Part shown: in pieces, positions 45,686-64,000 of the stretch
How positions within the stretch are numbered: the first letter of the stretch is position 1
How the letters are laid out: every line of letters begins with the position of its first letter
Origin: Gordonia pseudamarae
GTDB taxonomy: Bacteria > Actinomycetota > Actinomycetes > Mycobacteriales > Mycobacteriaceae
NCBI RefSeq assembly: GCF_025273675.1
Contig: NZ_CP045809.1
Location: forward strand, 3,596,001 to 3,660,000
Direction: 5' to 3'
DNA length: 64,000 bases
Notes under the pieces: model-generated
Databases searched by the model: none
The model's input: the letters and a program-made list of their open reading frames with translations, nothing else
Told to the model about the DNA's origin: nothing
Position numbers and translations under genes: made by a program

Positions 45686-45820
45686 CCTGAAATGTTCCTG
45701 TTGGGTCCGGATTTTCGGGTTCAACAGCCGATCGCCGCCCGCTACGCTCACCCAACGCTGGTCGGTGACCGCCGTAAACCCCGTCTGTACGAACCCATTG
45801 ATACGTTTATTCCTGTGACG

Positions 45821-48800
45821 ATGGCCGAAAACACCACGCTCGATGACCGGCATTCCCGGAGCAGCCGGTCTGCTCTGCCAACGCTCCCAGAACCGGGCCA
45901 GGTGGTCGAGGTGCGTGGGTCGATGTGGGCGGTTGCCGATGTACAAGCACAAGGCTTGACGCGCAGCTCAGCCGATGAGTCCGCCCCTGGTCTCTCGCAT
46001 GTTGTCGAGTTGCAGTCACTCGACGAGGACCGGCTCGGCGAGCAGCTCTCGGTGGTGTGGGATCTCGAAGTCGGACACACCGTCACGCCTGCTCAGGGAC
46101 TTCCCGATGTGATCCACGCCGATGCTTTTGATGAGCCAGCCACGCTGGCCGGTTTCATCGATGCGATGCGGTGGGGCGCGGTGACCAGCGCCGACCCCAA
46201 CCGTTACCAGGCGCCGTTCTGGTCGGGCGTGAATGTCGAGGCGTATCAGCTCGAACCACTCCGCCGTGCCCTCGGGGCTCCGCGCACGAATCTTCTCCTC
46301 GCCGACGATGTCGGTCTCGGCAAGACCATCGAGGGCGGACTGGTGATTCAGGAGTTGTTGCTGCGTCATCGCGCGCGCACTGCGGTCATCGTCTGTCCGC
46401 CGAGTCTGGCGTTGAAGTGGCAGGACGAGATGCGCGAGAAGTTCGGTTTGGAGTTCACCATCGTCAACTCTGAGTTGATGGCGCAGGTGCGTCGGACCCA
46501 CGGTTTGCACGCCAATCCGTTCCAGCTGTTCCCACGGGTCATCGTTAGCATGGCATGGCTCCCGCAGGTCCGTGCGCAGCGGTTGCTCCGTGATGTCTAC
46601 TCCCAGGCGACCAACCCGAAGATCGGGAAACGCTACGCCTTCGACATCCTCGTGGTGGATGAGGCTCACCACGTCGCGCCGTCGAGTCCGTCGGTGATCG
46701 CCGGTGGCCGAGGTTATGCGGTAGACACGCAACGTACCGTCGCCGTTCGCCGACTCGCGGAGCGCTGCGAGCACCGCTTGTTCCTGAGCGCCACCCCACA
46801 TAACGGCCATCCCGAGTCCTTCACGGCACTGATGGAAATGATCGACCCGCACCGCTTCGCCCGCGGCGCGAGTCTCGACGCCGCCGCGTTGAAGGACGTC
46901 ACCGTCCGCAGGCTCAAAACAGACTTGCCCGGAAAAGGCTTCAAGAAACGCATAGTCGAGGCTCTCGGCGTCGAACCGACCGACTCCGAGCAGCAGATGT
47001 TTTCCCTGCTCGATGAGATCGTGACCGCCAGCGCCAAGCTGAACGGCACCAAACCGGGCGGCGACATCGTCACGATGCTGTTGAAGAAGCGTTTCCTGTC
47101 CAGCCCGTTCGCGTTCGGAATGACACTGAGCCATTACCTCTCGTCGAAAGCCGGGCGTGGGTTGTCCGACGATGAGTACGACGATCTCTTCGGCGAAGGT
47201 CAGGCCGACGAGGAGGAGGGCCTGTGGGAGCAGGACGAGACGACGAAACTGCGTGAATCCAAGGGGTCGGACCCGCTGATCGCCGCTGAACCCGGCCAGC
47301 TCGACGCCCTGATCGAGTGGGGCCTGAGCTACGAGAGCCGGGCCGATTCGCGGCTGGACCGGCTGATCAAACATCTCGACGCCATCTGCCGACCGGATGG
47401 CAAGCACTGGTCGAATGAGCGGGTGGTGGTGTTCACCGAGTACGCCCACACCGTCGACTGGCTGACCCGGGTGCTCAATCAGCGTGGGTACACCGAGGAT
47501 CGGCTGGCTGTCATCCAGGGGTCCACTCCTACCGAGGACCGCGAGTACATCCGTACGCAGTTCACCACCGACCCGGCCACCGAACCGGTCCGTGTCCTGC
47601 TCGCCACCGACGCCGCCGGTGAGGGCATCGACCTGCAAACCCACTGCCATCGGCTGGTCAATTTCGACATCCCGTTCAACCCGTCCCGCCTGGAACAACG
47701 CATCGGCCGCATCGACCGCTACGGTCAGACCGAGGCACCGGAAGTTTTCCATTTCGTGCCGGTCGCCGGTTCCTCGACATACGCCACCGATCTGAACTTC
47801 ATGGAGCGCATCGCCCGCAAGATCGCACAGGTCGAATACGATCTCGGGTCAGCGAATCAGGTTGTCGGCGAAGAGATCCAGGGCCATTTCGGCAAGCGGA
47901 GGCAGACGAAGAAGAAGCCAAAGGGTGTCGACGCCAACGAGGTCATCAACTCGGCGCTGGCCGGCGGTATGGAACTGAACGCCCGCCTGACCCAATTGGA
48001 GCAGGGATACGACGGGTCACGCACCGAGATGCACCTCGACCCGGCCAATTTACGACGCGTCGTCGATACCGCTCTGCGCATCAATCACCAGTCGCCGTTG
48101 CTCCCCACCGACAAGTTCGCGCAAGACACCGATGCGGAAGTCTTCACCGTGCCCTCGCTGACGGCTGGTTGGCATGACGCGCTCCGTGGTCTTGACACGA
48201 GACTCAAACCCGGTGAACTGCGACCGATCACCTTTGACCCGGCCACCGCCGAAGGCCGCGCCGATCTTGTCTATGTCCACCTTGGGCATCCGATTGTCCA
48301 GAAGGCTCAGCGGCTATTGCGGCGCGCGCTGTGGAGTGTCGACTCGCCACTCAACCGGGTCACCGCAGTGGTGGTCGACGACCTCGAAGAGTCCTTCGTC
48401 GCAGCCGTCACCCGGATGGTGCTGGTTGGGCGTGGCGGCGTGCGCCTGCATGAAGAGATTTTCCTGGCGGGGGTTCGGGTGAAGGGTCGCCGGGCGATGG
48501 CCGAGGAGAAGGCCGAAGCCGCCCTCGACAAGGCACTCGACCGCGGGCACCTGTCCCTCGCGGACGACCAAGTTCGCCGACAACTCTGTGACCTGTGGAA
48601 TGTCCCCGACGCACCGCTGCGATTGCGTCTCGAAGAGTCGATGAAGTCCCGAGCAGACCGTCGGCACCAGTTGGTCACCGAGCAGCTGGCGAAGCGCCAG
48701 GCCGCAGATGTCCAGCGTGCCAAGGAGATTTTCGCGGCGTTCCGCACCAACCTGCGTGACTCCCTGGTCCGGCTACGCGCAGAGGAAGCCGAGGCTCAGG

Positions 48801-49006
48801 GGCAACTGTTCGCCGACCCCGACCAGCAGCGTCAGTGGCGGCGTGACATCGACGCCATGAACCGCCGCTTCGATGAACTCGACGACGAGGAGGCACGAGA
48901 GATCGCCGCCATCACCGACCGCTACGCGGACGTGAAGCCACACACCACTGCGGCGGCTGTCGTGTTCGCACTAACTGGCACTGATGCAGAAGGGTGGGTC
49001 AGCTGA
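45821..49006 (+). CDS. drmD: DISARM helicase DrmD (SNF2-like)
   Basis: A 1,061-residue helicase that defines class 1 DISARM systems. Walker A LLADDVGLGKTIEGGL (about residue 160), DEAH box ILVVDEAHHVAPSS (about 279), then FLSATPHNGHPES, and the second RecA domain with LATDAAGEGIDLQTHCHRLV and RLEQRIGRIDRYGQT. The C-terminal 350 residues are helical and contain a coiled coil (RRFDELDDEEAREIAAITDR). I prefer ATG 45821; GTG 45815 is equally possible and the frame is open to 45692. The methylase start overlaps its stop (TGATG), so they are one operon. DISARM blocks incoming phage DNA; how DrmD contributes is not settled. Confidence 0.9.
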   Translation: MAENTTLDDRHSRSSRSALPTLPEPGQVVEVRGSMWAVADVQAQGLTRSSADESAPGLSHVVELQSLDEDRLGEQLSVVWDLEVGHTVTPAQGLPDVIHADAFDEPATLAGFIDAMRWGAVTSADPNRYQAPFWSGVNVEAYQLEPLRRALGAPRTNLLLADDVGLGKTIEGGLVIQELLLRHRARTAVIVCPPSLALKWQDEMREKFGLEFTIVNSELMAQVRRTHGLHANPFQLFPRVIVSMAWLPQVRAQRLLRDVYSQATNPKIGKRYAFDILVVDEAHHVAPSSPSVIAGGRGYAVDTQRTVAVRRLAERCEHRLFLSATPHNGHPESFTALMEMIDPHRFARGASLDAAALKDVTVRRLKTDLPGKGFKKRIVEALGVEPTDSEQQMFSLLDEIVTASAKLNGTKPGGDIVTMLLKKRFLSSPFAFGMTLSHYLSSKAGRGLSDDEYDDLFGEGQADEEEGLWEQDETTKLRESKGSDPLIAAEPGQLDALIEWGLSYESRADSRLDRLIKHLDAICRPDGKHWSNERVVVFTEYAHTVDWLTRVLNQRGYTEDRLAVIQGSTPTEDREYIRTQFTTDPATEPVRVLLATDAAGEGIDLQTHCHRLVNFDIPFNPSRLEQRIGRIDRYGQTEAPEVFHFVPVAGSSTYATDLNFMERIARKIAQVEYDLGSANQVVGEEIQGHFGKRRQTKKKPKGVDANEVINSALAGGMELNARLTQLEQGYDGSRTEMHLDPANLRRVVDTALRINHQSPLLPTDKFAQDTDAEVFTVPSLTAGWHDALRGLDTRLKPGELRPITFDPATAEGRADLVYVHLGHPIVQKAQRLLRRALWSVDSPLNRVTAVVVDDLEESFVAAVTRMVLVGRGGVRLHEEIFLAGVRVKGRRAMAEEKAEAALDKALDRGHLSLADDQVRRQLCDLWNVPDAPLRLRLEESMKSRADRRHQLVTEQLAKRQAADVQRAKEIFAAFRTNLRDSLVRLRAEEAEAQGQLFADPDQQRQWRRDIDAMNRRFDELDDEEAREIAAITDRYADVKPHTTAAAVVFALTGTDAEGWVS

Positions 49007-52000
49007 TGGCACGCACAGCAAGTCGCGGCGGCAAGAAGATCAATGCCACCGACCAGCATCGAGCATGGCTCGAACTCGTCGACACCGACGGCCCATTCCT
49101 GGCGATCCCGCCGCTGAAGCGGGTATGGCCGCAGGGCATGCCCAGCCTCGATGACGAACGCAAAACCGCACTCGTCGACGCCCGCAAGGACTTCGAGGGC
49201 GCCTGGGAGCAACTCGATCAAGCCCCTGACGCCGACGAGGTGCGGGTTTCTTACCGCGTCGCGCGCGACAAGTGGGTGGAGACCATCTTGCGTGATGTGG
49301 CAGGGTGGGCTGAGTCGCTGTCGTGGGGTGAGGTGCCCGACGCGCAGGCTCAATCACCAAACCGTGCGGTGACGATCCGGGCGCAGGCGTCATTGAGCGG
49401 TGCTGACGGTATCGGTGCGATCGTGCATGTCGTCGACTCCGTCGACTCACTACGTCAAACACCGGGCGACCTATGGGCCGCCACCCCGATCGACCGCGTC
49501 GAAGTCATGTTGCGGGAGAGCAAGGTCTCGATCGGTATTGTCACCGACGGCCGCTGGTGGGGTCTGGTCTGCGCCCGTGACGGGGCGGTCGCCGCGTCCG
49601 GCATCATCGACGCCCTCACCTGGATCGAGGAGTCGCGCACCCGCGACGCCTTCTTCACGCTCATCGGGCGGCAGCACCTTGTCGGCGGTGATCCGTCGGA
49701 ACGACTGCCCGTCCTGTTCGAGGAATCCGTAGCGGCTGCCGAAGAGATCACCGAAGCCCTTGGTGCGCAGGTCCGCCGGGCCGTCGAGCTGCTGATCCAG
49801 TCCTTCTCCGAGTCTGCGTCCGACGCCCGCCGCCGTGGCCTCCCCGACCCGCTGCCAACGCGCACTCACGACACGTATGAAGCGGCTGTCACGGTGATGA
49901 TGCGGACCGTGTTCCTCTTGTTCGCCGAGGAACGTGGACTACTGCCGTCGGGTGAGTTGTTCGAGCAGGGCTACGGAATTGCCCGCGAGTTGGAGCGCCT
50001 CCAGGCCCGCGAAACCGAGGAAAGCGAAGAAGCACTCGACGCCACATCGTTGACGTGGCACCGGCTCCTCGCCACCAGCCAGGCCCTCTACCAGGGGGCG
50101 ACTTTCGAGAACCTTCGGATGCCAGCCTACGGTGGCTCCTTGTTCGACCCGGACCGCTTCCCGTTCCTCACCGAGATCAACGATCACGGAACCCTGGCGA
50201 TCACCGTCTCCGACCGGGTCATGCTGCACGTCCTACGATCGGTACAAGTCGCCGACATCAAGAGCGAAGCCCGACGAATCTCCTTCCGCGACATCGATGT
50301 TGAACAGATCGGCTACATCTACGAGGGCCTGCTCGGGTACACCGCCACAGTAGCCGACGAAATTATCGTCGGCCTCAAGGGCAAACTCGGCGAGGAACCC
50401 GAGATTCCACTCGCCAAGCTCGAAGAGCTGGCGACCCAACACACCGACCCGAAGAAGCTGGCCGCAGCCATCCGCACCTATGTGCTCGAAGACCAGCCGT
50501 CATGCAAACCATCAACCATGCCAGCAATCGCCAAGGCGATAAGCGCCAATGTCGAACCGAACGTCGTCAGCGCCCTCACCCAGGCCGTGGGTGACAACCT
50601 CGACCTCCGGGATCGAGTGAAACCGTGGCTCGGCGTGATCCGCCTCGACCTGCGCCAACGCCCGTTCGTAATCCTCGACGGTGGTCTCGTCGTCAAAGAG
50701 ACCCCGTCCCGCAAAAACTCCGGGGCGCACTACACCCCGAAGTCGCTGGCCGAAGATGTTGTGCTGCACGCACTTCAACCACTCTGCTATTCTCCCGGTC
50801 CGCACCAGACAGCCAACCAGGACGAGTGGAAGCTGAGGTCACCGTCAGAGTTGCGGAGCCTTAAGGTCGCTGACATTGCCTGCGGTTCGGGTGCATTCCT
50901 TGTCGCGGCCGGCCGCTACCTCGCGGATCGGCTTGTCGAAGCACTCGTCGCCGAGGACCCTGCTCGCGAGGATCGCGCTGAGCTCAAGACTTGGGCCATC
51001 CGCGAAGTAGTGGCGCGGTGCCTCTACGGCGCCGACATCAACGACATGGCCGTCGAAATGTGCAAGCTGTCACTCTGGCTCGTCTCACTTGATCGCGACC
51101 AGCCGTTCAGTTTCGTCGACGACAAGATCTTCGTCGGCAACTCGCTTCTCGGGATCACCGACCGCAGGCAGCTACGCAACCTCCACATCGACCCGAAGAA
51201 GAAGCCGAAGTTCGTCTTCTCCGAGGAGTTCGACGTAGACATCGACGGCATCCTCAAGGAGGTAGCCTCCCTCCGCAAGGACTTGACCAGCCCGGTCAAG
51301 GAAGGTGATCCGATGCTGGCGACGGCGGCCAAGCGTCGGCAACATCGGCGTTCGCGGGAACTGAGCAACCAGCTCCGCAGGTGGGCGGATGGAATCGTCG
51401 CCGCCGGCCTTGCGGTTGGGAGCAAGCCGGGTCGGGCGCTCGACGACAAATACGAGACCCTTCGTATTGCCGTGAAGAACGACGCCGACGAGAATGCACA
51501 AGTCCTCGACACGATGCTCGCGCAAGGTCTGACGCCGACCGTTGACACGGACTATGAGCGCTGGCAACCGTTGCACTGGGTGATCGAGGCACCGGACGTA
51601 GTCGTCGACAACGGCGGATTCGACGCGATCATCGGCAACCCGCCGTTCCTCGGTGGGCAAAAACTGACCGGGGCGATGGGAACCAACGTCCGCGATTCGT
51701 TCGTCAACATCATCGCCGAAGGCCGCCGGGGAAGCGCCGACCTCGTCGCCTACTTCTTCCTGCGTGCGACCTCGCTCTTGCGAACAAACGGCACCCTCGG
51801 GCTCATCGCCACCAACACCGTCGCCCAAGGCGACAGCCGCGAAGTCGGACTCGATGCAATGGTCGAGGGCGGGTTCACCATCACCCGCGCGATCCAGTCG
51901 CGGTCATGGCCAGCGGCCAGTGCCAACCTCGAGTACGCCGCCGTCTGGGGGACAGTCGGTCCGGTGGATGACGACGTTCCGCGGGTGTCCGATGACACAG

Positions 52001-53049
52001 ACGTTCGCCGCGTAAGCACCTTGCTTGAAGCGGAGGGTCGAACCGTTGGGAACCCTGTGCGACTTGATGAGAACTCGGGAATCGCTTTCATAGGCTGTTA
52101 TGCGCTCGGCATGGGATTCGTCCTCGAACCGGCAGAGGCGCAAGAGTGGATTGCCGCAGATCCCCGCAACACCGACGTACTCTTCCCATACCTCAGCGGC
52201 GAGGACCTGAACCAGCGTCCCGATGCAACAGCCTCTCGCTGGGTCATCGATTTCAACGATTGGTCTGAGGACCGCGCGCGTTCTTTCGCGCTGCCGTACG
52301 AACGTCTGGCCCAGCGTGTGAAACCCGAACGCCAGCGACGAAGACAGGACGGTCAGTACGCGCTGAGAAAGCCACTTCCCGAACGTTGGTGGCAATATGC
52401 GGAGAAACGTCCCGCTATGCGTAAGGCTATCTCAGGGTTGTCTGAGGTGTTGGTCCTCGCGCAAGTCAGCAACACTGCGCAGCCGATGCTCATTCCCCGA
52501 GGAATCGTCCCGAGCCACAAAATTGTTGTCTTCGCGTCCGAGAGCCGTGTGCTGCTGACTCTTCTATCATCCTCGCTACACTATTTCTGGGCGCGCAAGT
52601 ACTCCGGTGCGATGAAGAACGACTTGAGTTATTCTCCATCGGATGTATTTCTTACCTTCCCGATGCCCGAACCGACTGAAAGAATGGAGACAGCAGGGTT
52701 TGCTCTTGACGTAGAACGTCGGGATATTATGAAGCGGAGAGGCGTTGGTCTTACGAAACTCTACAACTTCGTAAACGACCCCGAAGTCGTCGATGTCGAC
52801 GTTCGTAGGATCCGGGAACTTCAGGTTGAGATTGACCACGCAGTCGCTGAAGCGTATAGATGGGACCTTCCGCTTCGGCACGGGTTCCACTCGTACCGGC
52901 AGGTTCGACGCTGGAGTCCTGATCCCGCAGCTCGCATCGAACTCCTTGATCGACTCCTTGAGCTGAACCATTCGCGAGTAGGCCATGTCAACGAGACTGC
53001 CGTGGACGAGGTGACAATGACGGGCGCTGAGGCTACTTTATTCGAATAA
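49006..53049 (+). CDS. drmMI: DISARM adenine methylase DrmMI with invertible C-terminus
   Basis: A 1,347-residue class I N6-adenine methyltransferase of the large type IIG/PglX-like form. SAM motif I VADIACGSGAFLVAAGRYL (about residue 621) and catalytic NPPF in AIIGNPPFLGGQ (about 877). The region from residue 920 on lies in a pair of nested inverted repeats whose other halves are downstream on the minus strand: residues 920-985 in IR-A, 985-1034 variable segment V1, 1035-1150 in IR-B, 1151-1347 variable segment V2. V2 (VSNTAQPMLIPRG..., LLSSSLHYFWARKYSG) has the look of a target-recognition domain. Methylation by DrmMI marks self DNA in class 1 DISARM. Confidence 0.92.
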   Translation: MARTASRGGKKINATDQHRAWLELVDTDGPFLAIPPLKRVWPQGMPSLDDERKTALVDARKDFEGAWEQLDQAPDADEVRVSYRVARDKWVETILRDVAGWAESLSWGEVPDAQAQSPNRAVTIRAQASLSGADGIGAIVHVVDSVDSLRQTPGDLWAATPIDRVEVMLRESKVSIGIVTDGRWWGLVCARDGAVAASGIIDALTWIEESRTRDAFFTLIGRQHLVGGDPSERLPVLFEESVAAAEEITEALGAQVRRAVELLIQSFSESASDARRRGLPDPLPTRTHDTYEAAVTVMMRTVFLLFAEERGLLPSGELFEQGYGIARELERLQARETEESEEALDATSLTWHRLLATSQALYQGATFENLRMPAYGGSLFDPDRFPFLTEINDHGTLAITVSDRVMLHVLRSVQVADIKSEARRISFRDIDVEQIGYIYEGLLGYTATVADEIIVGLKGKLGEEPEIPLAKLEELATQHTDPKKLAAAIRTYVLEDQPSCKPSTMPAIAKAISANVEPNVVSALTQAVGDNLDLRDRVKPWLGVIRLDLRQRPFVILDGGLVVKETPSRKNSGAHYTPKSLAEDVVLHALQPLCYSPGPHQTANQDEWKLRSPSELRSLKVADIACGSGAFLVAAGRYLADRLVEALVAEDPAREDRAELKTWAIREVVARCLYGADINDMAVEMCKLSLWLVSLDRDQPFSFVDDKIFVGNSLLGITDRRQLRNLHIDPKKKPKFVFSEEFDVDIDGILKEVASLRKDLTSPVKEGDPMLATAAKRRQHRRSRELSNQLRRWADGIVAAGLAVGSKPGRALDDKYETLRIAVKNDADENAQVLDTMLAQGLTPTVDTDYERWQPLHWVIEAPDVVVDNGGFDAIIGNPPFLGGQKLTGAMGTNVRDSFVNIIAEGRRGSADLVAYFFLRATSLLRTNGTLGLIATNTVAQGDSREVGLDAMVEGGFTITRAIQSRSWPAASANLEYAAVWGTVGPVDDDVPRVSDDTDVRRVSTLLEAEGRTVGNPVRLDENSGIAFIGCYALGMGFVLEPAEAQEWIAADPRNTDVLFPYLSGEDLNQRPDATASRWVIDFNDWSEDRARSFALPYERLAQRVKPERQRRRQDGQYALRKPLPERWWQYAEKRPAMRKAISGLSEVLVLAQVSNTAQPMLIPRGIVPSHKIVVFASESRVLLTLLSSSLHYFWARKYSGAMKNDLSYSPSDVFLTFPMPEPTERMETAGFALDVERRDIMKRRGVGLTKLYNFVNDPEVVDVDVRRIRELQVEIDHAVAEAYRWDLPLRHGFHSYRQVRRWSPDPAARIELLDRLLELNHSRVGHVNETAVDEVTMTGAEATLFE
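51764..51959. repeat. Inverted repeat IR-A, left arm
   Basis: 196 bp that recur inverted at 54154-54349, with about seven mismatches. The outer 91 bp (51764-51854) are perfect. Begins GTGCGACCTCGCTCTTGCG; the match stops abruptly at both outer edges. Confidence 0.95.
52108..52455. repeat. Inverted repeat IR-B, left arm
   Basis: 348 bp that recur inverted at 53658-54005 with one mismatch (52128). The 327-bp core 52129-52455 is identical in both arms. It encodes LGMGFVLEPAEAQEW through ISGLSEVLV in both copies. Confidence 0.97.
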
Positions 53050-53657
53050 CCTCCTCCTCAGTCGAACAACGATGCCTCGCCCCGTACACCCAAGTCTGCA
53101 ACGCCGGTATGCGCATCCTGATTTAGGGTGCGCGACTTATTCTCGTCAAGAAGTCGATCGAGCAACTCTATGCGTGCACGAGGGCTGACGCTCCATCGAG
53201 CGACTTGGCGGTACACATGGAACCCGTGGTCGAGTTCTAAGTCGTTCCAGCCATAGGCGCACACTGCGGCTTCGTCGACTGCAACCTGTAGGTCACGCAA
53301 GCGCGCAATATCGGTATCGTCACGGAGGTCGAAATTGTTGACCATGCTATACAGCTTAGTGGCCCCGACTCCCCGACGTGCCATAATCTCGCGTCGCTCT
53401 GAGTCCAAGGCCAAACCAACGTCCCGCAGTACATCGGTCGACTCGGGTCTAGGGAGAGATCCGAACACGAGGTCAGGCGTGTACGTGGCATCAGTTCGAA
53501 GCGTAGTGCCATATTTTATGGCCCACAATTGGTGGAGGCTCGAGGAGAGTAGCGCTTGCATAGCGAATGACGCGGTAGCGAAGACGACAACTTTCTCGTG
53601 AAATACCTGACTAGTTGGGACCCGGAGGGGCATGACAGTCTTGCTGACACGAGCGAT

Positions 53658-54005
53658 GACCAACACCTCAGACAACCCTGAGATAGCCTTACGCATAGCG
53701 GGACGTTTCTCCGCATATTGCCACCAACGTTCGGGAAGTGGCTTTCTCAGCGCGTACTGACCGTCCTGTCTTCGTCGCTGGCGTTCGGGTTTCACACGCT
53801 GGGCCAGACGTTCGTACGGCAGCGCGAAAGAACGCGCGCGGTCCTCAGACCAATCGTTGAAATCGATGACCCAGCGAGAGGCTGTTGCATCGGGACGCTG
53901 GTTCAGGTCCTCGCCGCTGAGGTATGGGAAGAGTACGTCGGTGTTGCGGGGATCTGCGGCAATCCACTCTTGCGCCTCTGCCGGCTCGAGGACGAATCCC
54001 ATGCC
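53658..54005. repeat. Inverted repeat IR-B, right arm
   Basis: Mirror of 52108-52455. Paired positions always sum to 106113, the same as for IR-A, so both repeats share one symmetry centre at about 53056.5 and V1 has no net length change. Confidence 0.97.
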
Positions 54006-54153
54006 AAGCACGATGCATCCCTGGAAGGCTATGCCAGCGTTCTCGGCGAGCCGAATTGGGTTGCCTTCAGTGCACCCTTGCGCTTCGAGGAGGGTGCTGA
54101 TGCGACGTACTTCGATGTCGTCGGCAACCCGTGGCACATCGTCGGCGACTGAT

Positions 54154-54349
54154 CCGACTGTCCCCCAAACGGCGGCGTACTCGAGGTTGGCACTCGCGGC
54201 TGGCCATGACCGGGATTGGATCGCGCGGGTGATGGTGAACCCGCCCTCGACCATCGCGTCGAGTCCGACTTCGCGGCTGTCGCCTTGGGCGACGGTGTTG
54301 GTGGCGATGAGCCCGAGGGTGCCGTTTGTTCGCAAGAGCGAGGTCGCAC
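54154..54349. repeat. Inverted repeat IR-A, right arm
   Basis: Mirror of 51764-51959. Its outer edge at 54349 is the end of all similarity to drmMI; unrelated DNA begins at 54350. Confidence 0.95.
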
Positions 54350-54412
54350 CCATTCGCAACGTTTACACCTGGTCACCGGCCGGGTAGTGGTGCCACCTGA
54401 TCCTGGCCCCAC

Positions 54413-54477: not shown

Positions 54478-55915
54478 ACGAGTAGTGCCCCATAGAGTGG
54501 TGTAACTCGGTGACCAGGACCGTGGCCGGCAGCGTGTGGCTGTCGGTATGGAAGCGGTCACCGTGTGATCCTTCGAGTCAACCTCTCACAGAATCCTCGA
54601 ATGGAGTCATCACGATGACCGCACCCCACATTGTCGACCCGGCCGGCCTGTTGAGCCAAGCTCTGACCGACGCGTCACCGGATCTGATGCGCGAGCTGCT
54701 GCAGACAGTGATTAACGCCCTGCTGTCTGCGGATGCCGACGCCGTGTGCGGCGCCGAATGGGGCCGCCGGTCCGAAGAGCGCACCAACTACCGCAACGGC
54801 TACCGCCACCGACCCCTCGATACCCGCGTAGGCACCATCGACGTCGCCGTGCCCAAGCTCCGGTCGGGCACCTACTTCCCCGAGTGGTTGCTCGAACGCC
54901 GCAAACGCGCCGAGTCCGCGCTGATCACCGTGGTCGCTGACTGCTATCTCGCCGGGGTCTCGACCCGCCGGATGGACAAGTTGGTCAAGACCCTGGGCAT
55001 CGATTCGTTGTCGAAGTCGCAGGTCTCCCGCATGGCCGAAGACCTCGACGAACAGGTTGCCGCGTTTCGTCACCGCCGACTGGACGAGGCGGGACCGTTC
55101 ACGTTCGTCACCGCGGATGCGTTGACGATCAAGGTCCGCGAGAACAAGCAGGTCGTCAAAGCCGTCGTGCTGCTGGCTACCGGCGTCAACGGTGACGGTC
55201 ATCGTGAGGTGCTCGGCATGCAGGTCGCCACCAGTGAGACCACAGCCTCGTGGAACACCTTCTTCGCCGACCTCGTGGCCCGCGGCCTGGGCGGAGTTCG
55301 CCTGGTGACTTCCGATGCCCATGCCGGGCTCATCGAGGCGATCGCAGCGAACCTACCGGGAGCGGCCTGGCAACGCTGCCGCACCCATTACGCGGCGAAT
55401 CTGATGGCGGTGTGTCCGAAGTCGATGTGGCCAGCAGTCAAGGCCATGCTGCACAGCGTCTATGACCAACCCACTGCTGGTGCGGTCAATGCCCAGTTCG
55501 ACCGACTCATCGAATACACCGAAGACCGCCTACCCGACGTCGCCGAACACCTCGGCGACGCCCGTGAAGACCTGCTGGCATTCGCCGCGTTTCCTGATGA
55601 CGTGTGGCGCCAGATCTGGTCCAACAACCCCACAGAACGACTCAACCGCGAGATCCGGCGCCGCACCGACGTCGTAGGCATCTTCCCGAACCGCGATGCC
55701 ATCGTCCGGCTCATCGGAGCAGTGCTCGCCGAGCAGACCGACGAATGGGCCGAAGGCCGCCGCTACCTCGGCCTCGAAGTGCTCAGCCGTTGCCGACTGA
55801 CCGTCACCGACACCGACCACACACCGGAGGTGAACACCGACCCACTGATCCAACTACCCGCCTGACCACCTACGAAGGACCACAACCAGTTACACCACTA
55901 CGCGGGACTTGACCC
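54478..55915 (+). mobile_element. IS256-family insertion sequence
   Basis: About 1.44 kb. The ends carry imperfect 28-bp inverted repeats whose inner 12 bp are perfect (AGTGGTGTAACT at 54496-54507, AGTTACACCACT at 55888-55899). Flanking 8-mers (54470-54477 and 55916-55923; CCATCCAG and ACGTCCAG read on the minus strand) agree at six positions, a worn target duplication. It lies in the RelE-like toxin gene. Confidence 0.8.
54615..55865 (+). CDS. IS256-family transposase
   Basis: A 416-residue mutator-type DDE transposase: RTNYRNGYRHRPLDTRVGTI, VPKLRSGTYFPEWLLERRKR, first Asp in TFVTADALTIKVREN, second in LVTSDAHAGL, CRTHYAANLM, and Glu in SNNPTERLNREIRRRTDVVG. Full length and open; start ATG 54615. 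Confidence 0.95.
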   Translation: MTAPHIVDPAGLLSQALTDASPDLMRELLQTVINALLSADADAVCGAEWGRRSEERTNYRNGYRHRPLDTRVGTIDVAVPKLRSGTYFPEWLLERRKRAESALITVVADCYLAGVSTRRMDKLVKTLGIDSLSKSQVSRMAEDLDEQVAAFRHRRLDEAGPFTFVTADALTIKVRENKQVVKAVVLLATGVNGDGHREVLGMQVATSETTASWNTFFADLVARGLGGVRLVTSDAHAGLIEAIAANLPGAAWQRCRTHYAANLMAVCPKSMWPAVKAMLHSVYDQPTAGAVNAQFDRLIEYTEDRLPDVAEHLGDAREDLLAFAAFPDDVWRQIWSNNPTERLNREIRRRTDVVGIFPNRDAIVRLIGAVLAEQTDEWAEGRRYLGLEVLSRCRLTVTDTDHTPEVNTDPLIQLPA

Positions 55916-56203
55916 CTGGACGTAGAACCAGATGCGGGCGGACCCTTTGAGGGTTGGCTTATGCTGCCATCGGGTGTAGGTCTCGCCATCGCGGACGATG
56001 TCGCCGAGCTCTCCGCGCAGTGGATAGTTGGTCGGCGTTACCGCCGTCGGAGTCCGGGTCAGGAAGTCCCACGCGTCGGCCAGTGGATTGCGGGTCGTCA
56101 CTGCCAAGTCCTGCCATCCCCTCCGTGCCTGTGTGCTCGCGAAACAGATTTCGTACTCAACCCTCTTCGGCGGCCGTGGGACCAGTTTTCCGCGTTCTCC
56201 CAT
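55898..56203 (-). pseudogene. RelE/ParE-like toxin, C-terminus cut by IS256
   Basis: 101 codons, of which the first 96 are native (YEICFASTQARRGWQDLA, GELGDIVRDGETYTRWQHKP, GSARIWFYVQ) and the last five plus stop come from the insertion sequence. The missing 18-residue end, with the His-rich strand that closes the RelE fold, lies at 54413-54469. It follows the antitoxin gene by 2 bp. Probably inactive as it stands. Confidence 0.72.
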
Positions 56204-56205
56204 CG

Positions 56206-56670
56206 CTACGGGCGCTCGACGGCGGTGTCATCACTCTCATCGAGCCAATCCACCTCGGCTCCACCCAACCCGGCGGCAATGGCGGTCGAAGTTTCTCGCC
56301 ACGAAGTCAGTTCCGCAACGATCAGATGCGGCTGATCGGTGGAGAACGACGCTCGTGCGGCGTTGATGAGGTCTTGGGCACAGGTCTCCCTGTCGTCGGG
56401 GGACAGCGCGAACATCCAGGGAAACGCGCGAGCCATCCGTCCGGCGAGCGGGCCATCATCGTCCACCACTACTCCGATGAGTTGTGCGGCGAACTCAAGC
56501 AACCGGGCACGATTGTCGGCCTCCCGTTGCGACATCAGCACAAGGGGATCACCGTCACGGCGGGTCACCGTCACAGGGTGGTCCTCAGCTTCGGCGAATA
56601 CCTCAGCAGAGTGCCTGCTCAGGTCCGAAGATCTGCGCGTAGAGGTGCGGCGTGCAGTCGACGTCGTCAT
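56206..56670 (-). CDS. Phd/YefM-like antitoxin
   Basis: A 154-residue antitoxin. The N-terminal part (SSDLSRHSAEVFAEAEDHPV followed by TVTRRDGDPLVLMSQREADN) is the Phd/YefM DNA-binding fold. The C-terminal half (ARAFPWMFALSPDDRETCAQ, LTSWRETSTAIAAGLGG) would wrap the toxin. First gene of the two-gene TA operon; the toxin partner is broken. Confidence 0.78.
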   Translation of the reverse strand: MTTSTARRTSTRRSSDLSRHSAEVFAEAEDHPVTVTRRDGDPLVLMSQREADNRARLLEFAAQLIGVVVDDDGPLAGRMARAFPWMFALSPDDRETCAQDLINAARASFSTDQPHLIVAELTSWRETSTAIAAGLGGAEVDWLDESDDTAVERP

Positions 56671-56747
56671 GCAGCCACCATATTCGGAATGTATTCAGAA
56701 CTCCATCGCGCAAAGGGTGACGCATGCCTCGTCACTGAGATGGGTGG

Positions 56748-58070
56748 GTGAATACACAACAAGCACGGCGCTGCGTGCTCTATGCACGGCTCAGCGTCAC
56801 CAAGGAAGAGTCCGTTTCGATTGCCCGCCAACTGCTGTCGTGTCGTCGGTACGCCGAGGCGCGGGGCTGGGAGGTGGTCGGCGAGTTCATCGACGATGGT
56901 GTGTCCGCCACGGCCAACAAGCCCGAGGATCGGAAAGGGTGGGCCGCACTGCTCGCGGCGACCGACTTCGATGCGGTCATCATCTGGAAGGTCGACCGGC
57001 TCGCCCGGCGCGTACTCGACTTTCTGCACGCCGACGAAGCACTGCAGAAGCGTGGTGCCGGTCTCGTGGCCGTCGAGGATCCGATCGACATGACGAGCCC
57101 GCAGGGGCGGGCTTTTGCGGTGATGCTGGCGGTGTTCGGGGAGATGGAGGCCGAGGCGATTCGCGCTCGGGTGCGAGCGGCGCGGGCGCAGCTGCTGAAG
57201 GACGGCCGCTGGGCGGGCGGTGGTATTCCGTACGGTTACCGGTCGTCGACGAACCCGGACGGTCCGGGATGGGTGCTGGTCAAAGACCCGGAGCGGCAGC
57301 CGTGGCTGACCGAGATCGTGGGTAAGGCACTCGGCGGAGCGACCGTCAATGCCATCACCACCTGGCTGACCACCGCAGGGGCACCACTGCCCGAAGGCTC
57401 GATCGCCAGACGGAAGTCGGGGGCGACCGGATGGAATCGGCAAACCGTCGACGGTATCCTCCGCAACCCGGTACTGGCCGGAATGACCCCGCATAATCCG
57501 GGGCGGCCGAAAAGCGCCAAACGTGCCGACCCATTCGCGGTGTTCCGTGACGAGACCGGCGAGGCGGTCGTCAACGAGACGCTGGCGGTCATCACCACCG
57601 AAGAGTTCAGGACGCTGCAGATGCTCCTCGATTCGCGCAGTACGCCGCAGGCCCGTAAGCGCAGCGAACGCGAACCCACCAGCCCGTTCCTCTCCCGCGT
57701 CGTCCGCTGCGACGACTGTGACGTGTTCATGTGTCGGGGCACGAACCAGAAGCGACCCGTCCTCTATTGTCCGTCGTGTCGCCAGACGATGAGTCGTTCA
57801 GCTTTCGACCCGTATCTCATCACGCGGCTGCTGGATGAGCGTGGCGCCGAACCTCTCGGTGGTTCCACGGTGCGGGCTCACTGGGCCGCTGCCGGGAACA
57901 GCGACGAGGCGCGGCGGGAGATTCTGCTCACCCAACTGGCGAGTCTGCGCGTCCGCCGGGGTGTCGTCGGCCGCTACTTCGATGAGAACAGGGTGCTGCT
58001 CCGGTGGCGGGACTCGGCTGCCGAACAGCCTTCCGTACCGGAATCACAGAGTCAGGATCGCCGCCCATAG
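56748..58070 (+). CDS. Large serine recombinase
   Basis: A 440-residue recombinase. The N-terminal resolvase domain has the nucleophile Ser16 in VLYARLS and the Arg-rich SIARQLLSCRRYAEARGW and WKVDRLARRV motifs. Then come a recombinase domain (GGIPYGYRSSTN, WNRQTVDGILRNPVLAGMT), a zinc ribbon (CDDCDVFMCR...CPSC) and a short C-terminus without the long coiled coil of phage integrases. GTG start at 56748. Such enzymes integrate, excise or invert DNA. It lies 2.4 kb from the invertible drmMI cassette and has no attached phage or element genes. Confidence 0.9.
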   Translation: MNTQQARRCVLYARLSVTKEESVSIARQLLSCRRYAEARGWEVVGEFIDDGVSATANKPEDRKGWAALLAATDFDAVIIWKVDRLARRVLDFLHADEALQKRGAGLVAVEDPIDMTSPQGRAFAVMLAVFGEMEAEAIRARVRAARAQLLKDGRWAGGGIPYGYRSSTNPDGPGWVLVKDPERQPWLTEIVGKALGGATVNAITTWLTTAGAPLPEGSIARRKSGATGWNRQTVDGILRNPVLAGMTPHNPGRPKSAKRADPFAVFRDETGEAVVNETLAVITTEEFRTLQMLLDSRSTPQARKRSEREPTSPFLSRVVRCDDCDVFMCRGTNQKRPVLYCPSCRQTMSRSAFDPYLITRLLDERGAEPLGGSTVRAHWAAAGNSDEARREILLTQLASLRVRRGVVGRYFDENRVLLRWRDSAAEQPSVPESQSQDRRP

Positions 58071-58562
58071 CTGGTAATCGGTCGGCGGTCCTTGCGGCTC
58101 CCAGCCCGCGCGAACCACCATTCGTTCGCTCGCGCCATTGCTGACGTGGATCTTGCCGCTGAGCACAACCTCCACGCACTCCAACTCGGTCGCCCGCTCG
58201 ACGGCGACTTTACGTGCCTGTGAGAGGAGTTGGTCGGCGATCTGTCCGCCTTGGCCACGCACCGTCATCGATACTCCGGCCACTACGTGAAACGCATTGA
58301 GGACTTCGTCCTGCCGGTCGAATTGGAGGTGGGCGCACGCGAGTATCTCGGACTCCGCGCGCCCCACCAAGACAAGATCACCAGGCCGGAGCCGCTGCCA
58401 CAGCTGCCGCAGGTGGGCTTGCGCCTCCCACTCCCACGGTCGGATATGCGGCAGTTTTCGCCCGCCAGAAGTCCGTGGGAGGTCGGTGGTGCAGGTGAAC
58501 CCTTGCAGAATCCGAGCCTCGCGGCGAGTGGTGATGTGTTGCCAAGACAGCTCATCAGTCAT
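58044..58562 (-). CDS. GNAT-fold acetyltransferase
   Basis: A 172-residue protein. The acetyl-CoA motif is VSMTVRGQGGQIADQLLSQA (Q/RxxGxG/A) and the C-terminal VSNGASERMVVRAGWEP is also GNAT-like. The start overlaps the stop of the XRE-ImmA gene (ATGA). GNAT proteins paired with XRE and COG2856 (ImmA/IrrE) proteins have been proposed as toxin-antitoxin modules. Its end overlaps the recombinase gene end by 27 bp. Confidence 0.75.
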   Translation of the reverse strand: MTDELSWQHITTRREARILQGFTCTTDLPRTSGGRKLPHIRPWEWEAQAHLRQLWQRLRPGDLVLVGRAESEILACAHLQFDRQDEVLNAFHVVAGVSMTVRGQGGQIADQLLSQARKVAVERATELECVEVVLSGKIHVSNGASERMVVRAGWEPQGPPTDYQLWAAILTL

Positions 58563-59704
58563 CCGGCCGCGCCGGTGACCATAGCCCGCAAGTCGGCCAC
58601 TGTCGGGCGGTCGGTGAGCATCACGGCGTACGCGTCAGCGGCCGCGTCGTCGTCAGGTTCGGGGAAGTCGATGTCATCGACGGGTACATCGAGCGCCCAC
58701 GCCAACAGCTCCGGCGACGCCGAGCCCCGGTCGACTTGGTGCTGCAGCGCCGAGAGCAACGTGAGCGGGACCCGGCGCGCCGACGATTGCTGTTCCCGCA
58801 CGACGATGGGATCAGGTTCGGTCGCGAGTCCGATCGCCGCACGGTTGTCCTGTAGCAGCCGTGGCGTCGTTTTCTCCAACGCCGCCGCGACAACCTCCGT
58901 CAGCTGGCTTCCGGTGCTGCGAAGTCGGTTCCGGACAGCTTCGGTGGACACTCCCAAATCCCATACGACCCGCGCAGCGTCCGCTTCGCTCGTCAGCGTG
59001 GTGAACTCGTCCGCCACTGCTGCGGGAAGGAGCAGCGCGGCGGCGAACTTGTCTGCGGCCTGTTCGTCGGGCTGATCCCGGCGCGACGGACCATAAGAAC
59101 TGTGATGCCCCAAAGCCAGGTGCCCGAGCTCATGCGCCAGGGACCAGTTGCTGCGGAACCAACTCGACCGCGTCGCCAGAACGATCACTCCCCTGCCGCC
59201 GATCCGGACGGAGTAGTCGGTCTTCAAGCCCGGGATTCGGATCACATCGACACCGAGATTCTGCTCGGTCACGTCGGCGAACGTCCGAGTGAACGACGGT
59301 CCGAGCAGGTCCCGCAGCGTTGATGGGTCGGCGGGGAGCTCGACCGAGGCACCTGGCCCGTGCGGCGGGTAGGCGGCACGGTAGAGCGCGACCACTTGAT
59401 CGAGAACCACCTGATCGTCGGCGCGGCCGTTGTTGACGCGCACCCTGCTGCGGGCATCCCACGAATGGCGGGCCGCGACGGACACCGCGAACGGGTCGTC
59501 GGCGCCGGTGATGAGCCAGTGGGTGTCGGCACCCAACACTTCGGCGATCGACGTCACCTCAGTTAAGGACAGTCCGCGTCGGCCATTCAGCGCACGCGAC
59601 AACGCGTCCGGTGTCATACCGACACGCTCGGCAAGACGGTTCTGACTCATCCCCGCCGGCATACGACTCCGGACCCGTTGACCAAGCTCAACCATCGCGT
59701 CCAT
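58559..59704 (-). CDS. XRE regulator fused to ImmA/IrrE metallopeptidase
   Basis: A 381-residue two-domain protein. Residues about 8-65 are a helix-turn-helix (MSQNRLAERVGMTPDALSRA); residues about 130-260 are the COG2856 peptidase with HELGHLALGHHS (HExxH) and DEQAADKFAAALLLPAA giving the third ligand Glu. This fusion cleaves or senses repressors in mobile elements and defence islands. With the GNAT gene it forms an operon divergent from drmA. Confidence 0.88.
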   Translation of the reverse strand: MDAMVELGQRVRSRMPAGMSQNRLAERVGMTPDALSRALNGRRGLSLTEVTSIAEVLGADTHWLITGADDPFAVSVAARHSWDARSRVRVNNGRADDQVVLDQVVALYRAAYPPHGPGASVELPADPSTLRDLLGPSFTRTFADVTEQNLGVDVIRIPGLKTDYSVRIGGRGVIVLATRSSWFRSNWSLAHELGHLALGHHSSYGPSRRDQPDEQAADKFAAALLLPAAVADEFTTLTSEADAARVVWDLGVSTEAVRNRLRSTGSQLTEVVAAALEKTTPRLLQDNRAAIGLATEPDPIVVREQQSSARRVPLTLLSALQHQVDRGSASPELLAWALDVPVDDIDFPEPDDDAAADAYAVMLTDRPTVADLRAMVTGAAG

Positions 59705-59817: not shown

Positions 59818-62800
59818 ATGGCAGAGGCAGCTACCCAGGCAACAGGCCCCCAGGCGACGTACGAGCTGAACTACGACCTGGACGGGTCGTCGAACGCGGT
59901 GCGCGAGAACCTCGTCGACATCCTCGAACGCGAACTGCTCGGCCCGATCCACGGTCCTGAGGAAACGCTGCCGTACAGCCCTCGCTCGCAGTACCTGGTC
60001 GGTCATATCGCGCCGGTCAAAATTTCCGGCGCCGCGACCGCGACATCGGAGAACACCGACGGTGACGACATCATCGAAGTGCGCACCGACACCGACGGTG
60101 CCGCCGAGGGCCGCGGTGTTCCAACGTACGCCGCCGACGACTCCGAGGCCGATGCTGAAGACGACGATGTGGAGGACCGCGCCCCCAAGCAGGGACTGAT
60201 GATCCCCGCATCGATGGGGTTGCGGTTCCAAGTCCCGGCCGACCTCGATACCTTTCGTGTGGTCGCGTCGTGGGGAACCTACGAGACGGTTGAAACTGGC
60301 AAGGTCACCAAGACCGGCAATCCGGTGCGCGAACATCAGCGGACACCGGTCGAGGAAACTCGCACCATCCGCCTCGCCGATCTGAGTCCCGGCCGCACGG
60401 CAACCGTGGTGTTGCGGGAGTCGATTGTGCTGCGGGTCGATCGCTACGACGACGCCGCGTACGGTCGGGTGCTCGTCGAGATCGCACTGTGCAACGACCG
60501 CGAAACCCCTATGCCGATCCCACTGAACATGTGGATCTTCCAAACCAAGTTGCTTGTCGACGCCGGCGGGTCCGAAGTCTTCCTACCGGTGCAGGACGTG
60601 ATGGACCACGACTGGCCCGAACACGACGACGAGATCAAACGCCTCAACTTGCAGTATCGCAACCGCATGGAATTCGCCATCGGCCGAACCTGCTCAGCCG
60701 ACTGGACGGTGAGGACGGGGGCCCGTCGCGCCACAGCCGTCGAAACGACGTGGCTCCCTATCGGCGAGACACCTCAGACAAAGGCGCGGTCGGTCGATGA
60801 TGCGCTGTTGTCGATGGACGCACTGGCGACGGTGTCTGCTGACGGGCTGCGCGCGGGACTCGAGCCACTGGTCAACGGCTACAACACCTGGCTCGGCACC
60901 CAGGAAGCCGCCGCCGCCGACTTGCCCCAGCACCTTCGGGAGACCGCCGACGCGGCCTTGTCGGAAGCCCGCCACGCACACAAACGGCTCGCCGCCGGGC
61001 TCGACCATGTCGTCACCGACGCCGAGGCGCTGCGCTGCTTCCAGTTCATGAACCGGGTCATGCGTGACCAGCGCATCGCGTCGCAGGTCGCCGCGGCTCG
61101 GGCCGCCGACTCCGCGCTACCCATCGACGCGGCCCAGGAGATTGTGGCGGCGCGCGGGCCTGCCGCCGCGTCGTGGCGTCCGTTCCAGCTCGCCTTCATC
61201 CTGATGCAGCTCGGCGCGCTGACCGACCCGACAACTACAGTCCGTAGTTCGGAGCATCTGTCGAACGTCGAGTTGCTGTTCTTCCCGACCGGTGGCGGCA
61301 AGACCGAGGCGTATCTCGGGCTCGCGGCATACACTTTCGCAATCCGACGTCGCCAAGGCGTCGTGGAATCGGCCGACGGACCGCTCGACGGCCGCAGCGG
61401 TATCGCGGTGTTGATGCGTTACACGCTTCGGCTGCTCACCGCGCAGCAGTTCCAGCGCGCGACCACACTTGTCTGCGCCGCAGAACTCGCCCGCCTCGAA
61501 GACGAAACGACCTGGGGAACAGAACCTTTCCGTATCGGCCTGTGGGTTGGAACCGATGTCAGCCCCAAACGTTTCGAGGAGGCCGACGAACAACTCAAGA
61601 AAGTGAACGAGGGCTACGGGCATCGCCTGACCGTCCTGCAGATTCAACGGTGCCCGTGGTGCGGCACACCGATCACCGGCAAGCAGGTCAAAGCGGACGC
61701 CAACTACCGCCGCGTGTTCGTGCACTGCGGCGATGAGTTGGCTCGGTGCCCATTCGCCAAAGGCGGTGCCGTCCGCGAAGGACTGCCGGTACTGACCGTC
61801 GACGAGGAAATCTACCGCCTTACACCGGCATTCGTGATCGCCACCGTCGACAAGTTTGCCCGGCTCGCACGGGAAGGCGAGGCCGCCGCACTGTTCGGGT
61901 ACGTCAGCCGACGTTGCGGACGGCATGGTTACGTCCACCAGGACTACCCGGCGTGCAACGTCGGGTCGCATACGGCGAAAAACGGCCTACCGGCGGCGAC
62001 TGTCGCACCCGTCGGCCGACTGCGTCCGCCCGACCTCATCATCCAGGACGAGTTGCACCTCATCACCGGCGCGCTCGGCACCTCCGTCGGCCTGTTCGAG
62101 GTGGTTGTCGAAACGTTGTCGTCGTGGGAGACACCCGACGGCGCATCGGTCAAACCACTCATCGTGGCCTCCACCGCGACATCCCGCAACGCCCAAGACC
62201 AAGTGCGCGGACTCTATGGCCGCCTCGTCGAGATCTTCCCGCCGCAGGTCCTCGACGTCGCCGACACCTACTTCTCGCAGGAAGTCCCGATCGATTCCAA
62301 GAACCCGGGTCGTCGCTATATCGGCGTCAGCGCGCAGGGTGTCCGGCTGTCGAGCGCCGAGATCCGCGTGGCGGAAGTGCTGCTGTCGGCCGGGCAACTA
62401 CTCCTCGACAAGGCGGGTGCGGCCGCCGATCCGTACATGACGTTGGTCGGCTATTTCAACGCCACCCGCGAACTGGCCGGTATGGCGCGCTACGTCACCG
62501 ACGACGTCCAGAGCCGAGTCAAACGGCCACGCAAGGATTCCGGATTCCCGAGTAGGCGCGGAGCGAGTTTCGGCCTGCTCAAGAAGGGTGAACTGACCTC
62601 ACGTATCGGGTCGGCGGAGATCGGTACGAACCTCGACCGACTCGGGCTCGAATTCGATCCGGACTACGATACGACAGCGGCCGCTCATCAACGCATCGCC
62701 GACGCCAAGGACGGCAAGAAGGTTCCGCGCCGCTCCGAAGCCGACTCACCCTTCGACGTCGTACTCGCGACATCGATGCTGCAGGTGGGTGTGGACGTGC

Positions 62801-63528: not shown

Positions 63529-64000
63529 TGACCGACGTGCTACCGGAATCAGACGACGACATGCTGAGCACCGACGAGGAACTCGACCCGATCAGCGACG
63601 CAGAAAAGAACGCGGTCAAGAACCGTGCCAAGGTGGGCTCCGCCAGACCTTCGTCGTTGCTCTATACCTACGGCCCCGGCGCCATCATGGACCTGCCGCA
63701 CTTCTCAATCATGCCAGCCGGCCTGGGCGACTGGGACCGGATCTGGCAGCGCCGCACTCATATTCCAACAATTATCGAACCGCGGCTCCTCAAAGTCGTT
63801 CGCGATCATCTGGGACGACAGGTGGACTCGCTGCGCCCCTACCCGTGGCAGCCGCAGCGGATGGGCATGTCCACCGAAGGTTCCGACCTCGGCATACCCG
63901 CCCGCGTGTTTCCCCAGTGGCTGCGGTGCACCGGCTGCGATTACCTCGGACCGCTACCCCGATTCCACTACACCAACACCCAACCGTTCCGACCCGACCA
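63528..64000 (+). CDS. drmB: DISARM protein DrmB (DUF1998), N-terminal part
   Basis: 158 codons are visible before the window ends. The start MTDVLPESDDDMLSTDEELD leads into the DrmB signature RPSSLLYTYGPGAIMDLPHF and then GDWDRIWQRR; a zinc-binding CTGCDYLGPLPRFHY follows. DrmB carries DUF1998 and forms a complex with DrmA. The start overlaps the drmA stop by one base. drmC (phospholipase D-like) is expected just beyond the window. Confidence 0.92.
   Translation, partial: MTDVLPESDDDMLSTDEELDPISDAEKNAVKNRAKVGSARPSSLLYTYGPGAIMDLPHFSIMPAGLGDWDRIWQRRTHIPTIIEPRLLKVVRDHLGRQVDSLRPYPWQPQRMGMSTEGSDLGIPARVFPQWLRCTGCDYLGPLPRFHYTNTQPFRPD

What the first reader, a model, noticed from the sequence alone, without database searches (positions are those of the whole stretch)
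51764..54349. Predicted invertible specificity cassette in a DISARM methylase
Seen: the last 428 residues of DrmMI lie in one arm of an inverted duplication; the other arm holds an alternative, fully open C-terminus without catalytic domain, promoter or ribosome site. Both end tail-to-tail, 8 bp between stops. All repeat positions are exactly symmetric (paired positions sum to 106113), and swapping at IR-A keeps the frame. Known: PglX of BREX systems and HsdS of type I systems switch specificity by such inversions. Inference: this DISARM system shuffles its methylase target, which would change the self mark and might be tied to how DrmAB recognises unmodified DNA. I do not know of a described phase-variable DISARM.
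Basis: partly seen in the sequence, partly recalled or inferred. Interest (0 to 1): 0.95.

Follow-up and report, generated by a model that had tools for sequence, protein, structure and literature searches.

The report
Phage defence methylase with shuffled specificity
In this bacterium, likely a Gordonia, the DNA-marking enzyme gene of a DISARM-type phage-defence operon is followed by a spare, inverted copy of its target-reading end and a DNA recombinase gene, which is predicted to flip the pieces in and out so that the cell would change which DNA it marks as self.

Summary
DrmMI (48994-53049) is followed tail to tail by an open, inverted, catalysis-free copy of its last ~430 residues (53058-54359); exact tracts of 91 and 327 bp alternate with two divergent blocks. 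The operon is class 1 DISARM. Of 71 relatives with drmMI and drmA on one contig, all 11 with an inverted silent copy have a recombinase in that slot (8 serine, 3 tyrosine); none of 60 others has a homologue of either. Synonymous codons are frozen at three points, and more weakly at a fourth, in recombinase-bearing loci. A public protein (P0004) joins the window's N-terminus and block 2 to the silent copy's block 1 (15 of 15 diagnostic residues): apparently a natural recombinant. Most likely a recombinase-driven, multi-point specificity shuffle of the DISARM methylase. No reads, methylomes or second orientation of this strain could be examined; changed specificity is inferred. New variant of a known kind; no description found in the papers searched.

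The parts
45692..49006 (+). drmD, SNF2-type helicase of class 1 DISARM
   Evidence: PADLOC DrmD PDLC02621 E=0
48994..53049 (+). drmMI, adenine methylase (expressed copy), 1351 aa
   Evidence: PADLOC DrmMI PDLC02643 E=0; Pfam Eco57I, MmeI_Mtase, MmeI_TRD
51764..51854 (+). exact tract A (91 bp), partner 54259-54349; overlaps frozen site A (codons about 924-933)
51945..52107 (+). variable block 1 of the expressed copy (diagnostic residues 990-1037)
52129..52455 (+). exact tract B (327 bp), partner 53658-53984; contains frozen site B (codons about 1049-1062, 52138-52179) and the start of frozen site C (codons about 1149-1160, 52438-52473)
52456..53049 (+). variable block 2 of the expressed copy (residues 1155-1351; by alignment MmeI TRD-C plus helical tail)
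53058..54359 (-). silent, inverted drmMI C-terminus, 433 aa, no catalytic motifs
53058..53657 (-). variable block 2 of the silent copy
53658..53984 (-). exact tract B, silent copy
54006..54168 (-). variable block 1 of the silent copy; found in the expressed position in public protein P0004
54259..54349 (-). exact tract A, silent copy (outer end of the cassette)
54480..55915 (+). IS256/Mutator-type insertion (transposase 54510-55865) between cassette and recombinase
   Evidence: Pfam Transposase_mut; 10 further full or partial copies at 90-100% in the same genome, besides 3 short pieces
55916..56747 (.). inserted Phd/YefM-type antitoxin and partner gene
   Evidence: weak Pfam PF02604, below its cut-off; 7 plasmid records at 69-76%, 6 of them annotated as antitoxin/prevent-host-death plus hypothetical, one without annotation
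56748..58070 (+). large serine recombinase, 440 aa, without coiled coil: candidate invertase
   Evidence: Pfam Resolvase + Recombinase; missing segment; Foldseek/VIA best match Bxb1
58559..59704 (-). XRE-HTH plus M78 protease, possible regulator; also in the drmMI-drmA gap of two relatives
   Evidence: L011 and L015 at 60-63%
59818..63528 (+). drmA, helicase
   Evidence: PADLOC DrmA
63528..64000 (+). start of drmB; drmB and drmC continue beyond the window (L089:7729-9771 and 9491-10465)
   Evidence: PADLOC DrmB and DrmC

Best explanation
The drmMI gene of this class 1 DISARM operon is followed by an inverted spare copy of its target-reading C-terminus and by a gene for a large serine recombinase without coiled coil, which most likely inverts DNA between matching points in the two copies, so that the expressed methylase would be fused to different recognition blocks. 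Shown: the anatomy; the open silent frame; catalytic motifs outside the repeat; a recombinase in every contiguous relative examined that has an inverted silent copy; places where synonymous codons are frozen in recombinase-bearing loci (A, B, C clearly, D weakly); a public protein in which block 1 alone is of the silent type. Inferred: exchange at the outermost point (A) would swap the whole recognition end, exchange at B or C only the distal part, so a few inversions would reach all four block combinations here. Inferred: site C lies at the border that in MmeI separates TRD-N from TRD-C, so an exchange there would replace the half that reads base pairs 3-6. Inferred: lack of the coiled coil would let the enzyme run both ways without a directionality factor. 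Untested: that the methylated motif changes, and that self-recognition by DrmAB follows it.
For: anatomy; class 1 DISARM genes; 71 loci with drmMI and drmA on one contig: 11 of 11 with a silent copy have a recombinase, 0 of 60 without; Fisher p=3.9e-13, kinship not corrected; 8 independent pairs on the tree, all concordant, p=0.0078; 21 genomes: close recombinase only in the 3 with a silent copy; recombinase match begins within 65 bp of the outer end of the silent copy in 12 of 17 loci; frozen synonymous codons; best windows A 0.58 against 0.25, B 0.74 against 0.38, C 0.66 against 0.31, D 0.57 against 0.35; whole stretch 0.444 against 0.401; P0004: 15 of 15 block-1 residues silent-type, 197 of 197 block-2 residues active-type; open frames, dN/dS below 1; 109, 111, 119, 130 (large serine recombinase without coiled coil); 121, 129 (MmeI mapping).
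Against: No second orientation of this strain was seen; P0004's source is not shown and its 8.7-kb contig could be an assembly chimera, though that would need misjoins at both tracts. In the window an IS and a toxin-antitoxin module separate cassette and recombinase, so the switch may be weak or locked here. Sites A-D share no significant common motif (best of 12 comparisons z 2.4), so one recombinase acting at all of them is not explained. Site D (z up to 1.7) is no stronger than two windows that are not exchange points (977-983, z 1.6; 1005-1012, z up to 1.8). Long exact tracts (up to 467 bp) suggest that homologous exchange or gene conversion also acts. Coiled-coil deletion makes LI integrase two-way at about 2% but inactivates phiC31 integrase (PMC10754689, passages). 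Two other Gordonia DrmMI loci have no silent copy.
Confidence: 0.82

Rival explanations
1. The arms exchange by ordinary RecA-dependent homologous recombination or gene conversion; the neighbouring recombinase plays no part.
For: Exact tracts of 327 bp (window), 336 bp (L020), 334 bp (L081), 341 bp (L147) and 467 bp (L146) are long enough for homologous exchange; no common site motif found.
Against: Association with a recombinase of two unrelated classes in the same slot; synonymous codons frozen at discrete points in recombinase-bearing loci; in L073 the exact tracts of 16 bp or more are only 46, 18 and 16 bp, with a sharp start.
Confidence: 0.12
2. The silent copy is a one-off duplication and the locus no longer switches (vestigial or locked).
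For: IS and toxin-antitoxin insertions between cassette and recombinase in the window; recombinase match split by some 5.7 kb in L032 and drmMI interrupted by an IS in L147.
Against: Silent frames are open in 16 of 16 copies read, arm-to-arm dN/dS is 0.21-0.40 in 14 of 15 loci, and P0004 shows an exchanged block in a near-identical gene.
Confidence: 0.04
3. The recombinase is the integrase of an unrelated mobile element that happens to sit in DISARM loci.
For: It is a large serine recombinase, a class mostly known from phages (recalled); its best phage matches are annotated serine integrases at 40%.
Against: It lies between silent copy and drmA in all 8 contiguous serine-type loci and in none of 60 loci without a silent copy; no plasmid match at 1e-40 and only 3 phage records at 1e-30; it lacks the segment that two integrase-like relatives have.
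Confidence: 0.02

Closest known systems
Invertible type I restriction hsdS loci (e.g. Streptococcus pneumoniae; only the abstract starts of PMC4948785 and PMC7394358 seen, in the listings; details recalled)
   Same: Expressed and silent specificity sequences exchanged by inversion between repeats; methylase target changes.
   Different: There a separate S subunit; here the recognition half of a single-chain MmeI-like methylase inside a DISARM operon, with several candidate exchange points within one gene and a serine (or, in 3 loci, tyrosine) recombinase.
BREX pglX with a partial pglX and a site-specific integrase (Lactobacillus rhamnosus; PMC7513527, passages)
   Same: Full methylase gene plus partial second copy and a recombinase gene in a phage-defence operon.
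   Different: BREX, not DISARM; the passages seen do not describe multi-point exchange within the gene or the recombinase class.
Class 1 DISARM (PMC9142583, passages; the original 2018 paper is not held)
   Same: Gene content drmD, drmMI, drmA, drmB, drmC.
   Different: No inverted silent drmMI end or recombinase gene is described in the passages seen; the words inversion, recombinase and phase variation do not occur in that paper's main text.
Phage large serine integrases (Bxb1, phiC31, LI)
   Same: Catalytic and recombinase domains, zinc-ribbon cysteines; Foldseek and VIA matches.
   Different: No coiled-coil segment; sits in a chromosomal defence operon; predicted reversible inversion rather than one-way integration.
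MmeI (type IIL RM enzyme, 5hr4; PMC4833311, passages)
   Different: DrmMI stands in an operon with helicases DrmD and DrmA; its recognition end is the exchangeable part.

Membership tests
Class 1 DISARM | drmD and drmMI beside core drmA, drmB, drmC | tested here: met
   PADLOC matches for all five
Class 1 DISARM | protects against phage | not testable with these tools
   needs an experiment
Inversion-driven specificity switch | inverted repeats shared by an expressed and a silent specificity sequence, same frame | tested here: met
Inversion-driven specificity switch | silent copy lacks its own start signals and catalysis | tested here: met
   (promoter by consensus scan only; ribosome site not tested)
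Inversion-driven specificity switch | site-specific recombinase linked to the segment | tested here: met
Inversion-driven specificity switch | alternative arrangements occur in nature | tested here: inconclusive
   P0004 has block 1 exchanged but its DNA, strain and orientation could not be seen
Inversion-driven specificity switch | arrangements differ in methylated motif | not testable with these tools
   needs methylome data
Large serine recombinase | Resolvase catalytic domain followed by Recombinase domain PF07508 | tested here: met
Large serine recombinase | zinc-ribbon cysteines | tested here: met
   C321, C324 and C344 invariant, C341 nearly so, in 26 aligned rows; Pfam Zn_ribbon_recom itself not hit
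Large serine recombinase | coiled-coil insertion in the C-terminal domain | tested here: not met
   36 residues between the last zinc-ribbon Cys and Trp379 in 25 of 25 family members aligned, 108 in P0243; a phage serine integrase has the insertion too
Small serine invertase (Hin/Gin) | about 190 aa, catalytic domain plus short HTH (recalled) | tested here: not met
   440 aa with PF07508
MmeI-type methylase | MmeI methylase and TRD domains | tested here: met

The most novel reading that the evidence does not exclude
A whole branch of actinobacterial DISARM carries a built-in specificity shufflon: a large serine recombinase that has lost its coiled coil works both ways without a helper, cuts the methylase gene at three or four codon-frozen points, one of them at the domain border of its DNA-reading end, and so lets clones keep re-drawing the self mark that DISARM reads; in Streptomyces-type loci a tyrosine recombinase took over the same job independently.
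Probability: 0.55. Interest if true: 0.9.

Novelty: new variant of a known kind. Interest (0 to 1): 0.82.

Why it matters
How DISARM tells self from non-self, and how much the methylase mark matters, is open. A natural switch that would change the methylase's target while DrmA and DrmB stay the same makes that directly testable: cells with different marks can be compared in one genetic background. It also points to a family of large serine recombinases that appear to have lost their one-way control part and may serve as reversible invertases within a gene, and it warns that a consensus genome of such a strain may show only one of several methylation states.

Tried and rejected
Scan of viral contigs with DrmMI: 2 stretches, none a relative. 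Plasmids: 30 records with DrmMI relatives, not examined further for silent copies; no recombinase at 1e-40. Common recognition motif among sites A-D: not found. Pairs of near-identical full-length DrmMI with differing ends among the 120 listed proteins: C-terminal diversity is high in many pairs, so only P0004 is a clean case; a weaker one is silent-type P0349, whose last 195 residues are 95% identical to expressed P0012. Contigs that end inside drmMI (7 of 80) fit breaks at the repeats: 5 of the 7 fall in the 14-row clade that holds 8 serine-type loci (p=9e-4), and L021 and L095 end at the same base of site B; this does not show both orientations.

Caveats. Association: the tyrosine query came from a silent-bearing locus (L065); other recombinase types in the 60 negative loci would be missed; 6 of those 60 have drmMI-drmA gaps over 200 bp and only L015 was looked into (XRE-M78). 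Independent pairs: the recombinase label was entered equal to the silent-copy label, because the two had coincided in every unbroken row, and the 7 broken rows were left out (80 of 87 rows used), so the test counts independent contrasts only; if only the serine type is counted it is 6 concordant, 2 not differing, p=0.031. Of 52 different genomes with DrmMI hits were given to the recombinase search. Exchange points: I first noticed them from the exact tracts between arms, so the arm-to-arm identities (A 0.84, B 0.93, C 0.84, D 0.79, elsewhere 0.67) are not an independent test; the codon scan leaves out pairs within a locus and is. Its 67 comparison sequences include the broken-contig loci, which may be recombinase-bearing. 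dN/dS is approximate because synonymous sites are near saturation, and divergence may predate the silent state. In one search the window, L063 and L147 rows have misframed stop gaps and the window's outer end is a few bases off; for the window I use. The DrmMI model (mean pLDDT 60.8) is reliable only in its recognition half; where block 1 lies relative to base contacts is uncertain.
Full report
What is there. The window lies in a 5.15-Mb single-contig genome. Its genus is taken to be Gordonia, because a same-genus genome (G031) gives a DrmMI row identical to that of Gordonia polyisoprenivorans L038. From 45692 on it holds drmD, drmMI, an inverted second drmMI C-terminus, an IS256-type element, a toxin-antitoxin pair, a serine recombinase, an XRE-M78 gene on the other strand, drmA and, running out of the window, drmB and drmC. 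By gene content it is a class 1 DISARM with insertions.

Check of the observation. The two arms are 91% complementary over 717 bp. All paired positions sum to 106113, with exact tracts of 91 and 327 bp and three shorter ones. Both frames are open and end tail to tail with 8 bp between the stops. The exact tracts alternate with two divergent blocks: block 1 (diagnostic residues 990-1037) and block 2 (1155-1351). The catalytic motifs at 629 and 882 lie outside the repeat.

An apparent natural recombinant. Among the listed relatives of DrmMI is P0004 (1347 aa; 9 member sequences, one contig of 8735 bp, source not shown). Its alignment shows the window's N-terminal part with 6 differences near the start, the silent copy's residues at all 15 positions that distinguish block 1, one private change at 1084, and block 2 identical to the window's active copy over 197 of 197 residues. 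Block 1 is thus of the silent type alone. From the window's arrangement that would take two inversions, one at tract B and one at tract A, or a gene conversion (inferred).

Relatives. One scan of genome contigs found 192 stretches that encode relatives and kept the best 80 as loci. An inverted second C-terminus follows drmMI in 13 of the 80. In 71 loci drmMI and drmA are on one contig: 11 have the silent copy and all 11 have a recombinase between it and drmA (8 homologous to the window's serine recombinase, 3 tyrosine recombinases in L065, L078 and L081), while 60 have neither (p=3.9e-13 without correction for kinship). On a DrmMI N-terminal tree the trait is scattered; 8 independent pairs can be drawn, all concordant (p=0.0078; caveats under Tried and rejected). 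A separate sample agrees: 39 of 397 genomes of the order and 14 of 396 of the phylum have DrmMI matches; an inverted C-terminal copy beside drmMI shows in G000, G953 and G1048, and of the 21 genomes given to only these three have a close recombinase (G170 has a 35% match elsewhere). The recombinase match starts within 65 bp of the outer end of the silent copy in 12 of 17 loci; the other five (window, L012, L039, L063, L078) have gaps of 0.26-4 kb. Proteins that resemble the silent copy are common: 999 of the 7997 candidates scored pass E 1e-40, most of the 120 listed bearing only the MmeI recognition domain.

Candidate exchange points. In a codon alignment of 25 C-terminal sequences from 13 recombinase-bearing loci and 67 others, I asked how often two sequences from different loci that share an amino acid also share its codon. 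Over the whole stretch this is 0.444 and 0.401. Seven-codon windows stand out at A (926-932: 0.58 against 0.25, z 2.6), B (1048-1054: 0.74 against 0.38, z 2.8) and C (1152-1158: 0.66 against 0.31, z 2.8); D (around 1184-1194, z up to 1.7) is weak, no stronger than two windows at 977-983 and 1005-1012. The same places carry exact tracts between the arms in many, not all, loci (in the window D is only 0.55 identical). By protein match the silent copy starts near A in the window, L009, L020, L028, L039, L063, L095 and L097, near B in L024, L032 and L073, near C in L011 and near D in L012. In L073 the match between arms starts exactly at TTG within site B. The sites share no significant common motif, which leaves open how one enzyme would serve all of them.

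Selection and decay. 16 of 16 silent copies read are open over the matched stretch (L095 is cut by its contig end; the frame of L063 runs past the usual stop), and arm-to-arm dN/dS is 0.21-0.40 in 14 of 15 loci, one being saturated. Some loci are damaged: an IS interrupts drmMI in L147, and the recombinase match of L032 is split by about 5.7 kb. In the window, the IS and the toxin-antitoxin pair lie between cassette and recombinase, so present activity in this strain is uncertain.

Known or new. Invertible specificity is well known for type I hsdS loci (search listings), and a partial pglX next to an integrase is described for BREX (PMC7513527, passages). I found no description of a phase-variable DISARM in five searches or in the passages seen of PMC9142583, PMC12707154, PMC7365801, PMC9716671 and PMC10273834. 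Of the 24 papers that hold drmMI at the start of a word (23 listed, most on unrelated subjects) I looked into four; the rest were seen as a listing only. The original DISARM paper is not held, and most subscription papers and all preprints are outside the library. I file it as a new variant of a known kind.

Noticed in passing
window 54480-55915: IS256/Mutator-type element with ten further full or partial copies in the genome, inserted between the silent cassette and the recombinase.
   Followed up: partly
window 55916-56747: Phd/YefM-type antitoxin and partner, similar to plasmid-borne pairs (69-76%), lodged inside the DISARM operon.
   Followed up: partly
window 58559-59704; L011:16579-17715; L015:14638-15774: XRE-HTH plus M78 protease gene, opposite strand, just before drmA in three DISARM loci (60-63% identity to the window's): possible regulator of the operon.
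   Followed up: no
L065, L078, L081: Tyrosine recombinase instead of the serine type in the same slot; near-identical outer repeat TTCCG[GT]CTGGTAGCCAACC between the arms of these loci (in L078 the exact tract starts one base later).
   Followed up: partly
   Followed up: no
L147:7784-9226: Insertion sequence with 25-bp inverted ends interrupts drmMI at about residue 908 in an Amycolatopsis-type genome.
   Followed up: partly
L021 end and L095 end: Two contigs end at the same base of site B with a 63-bp identical end, as if the assembly broke at the exchange point.
   Followed up: partly
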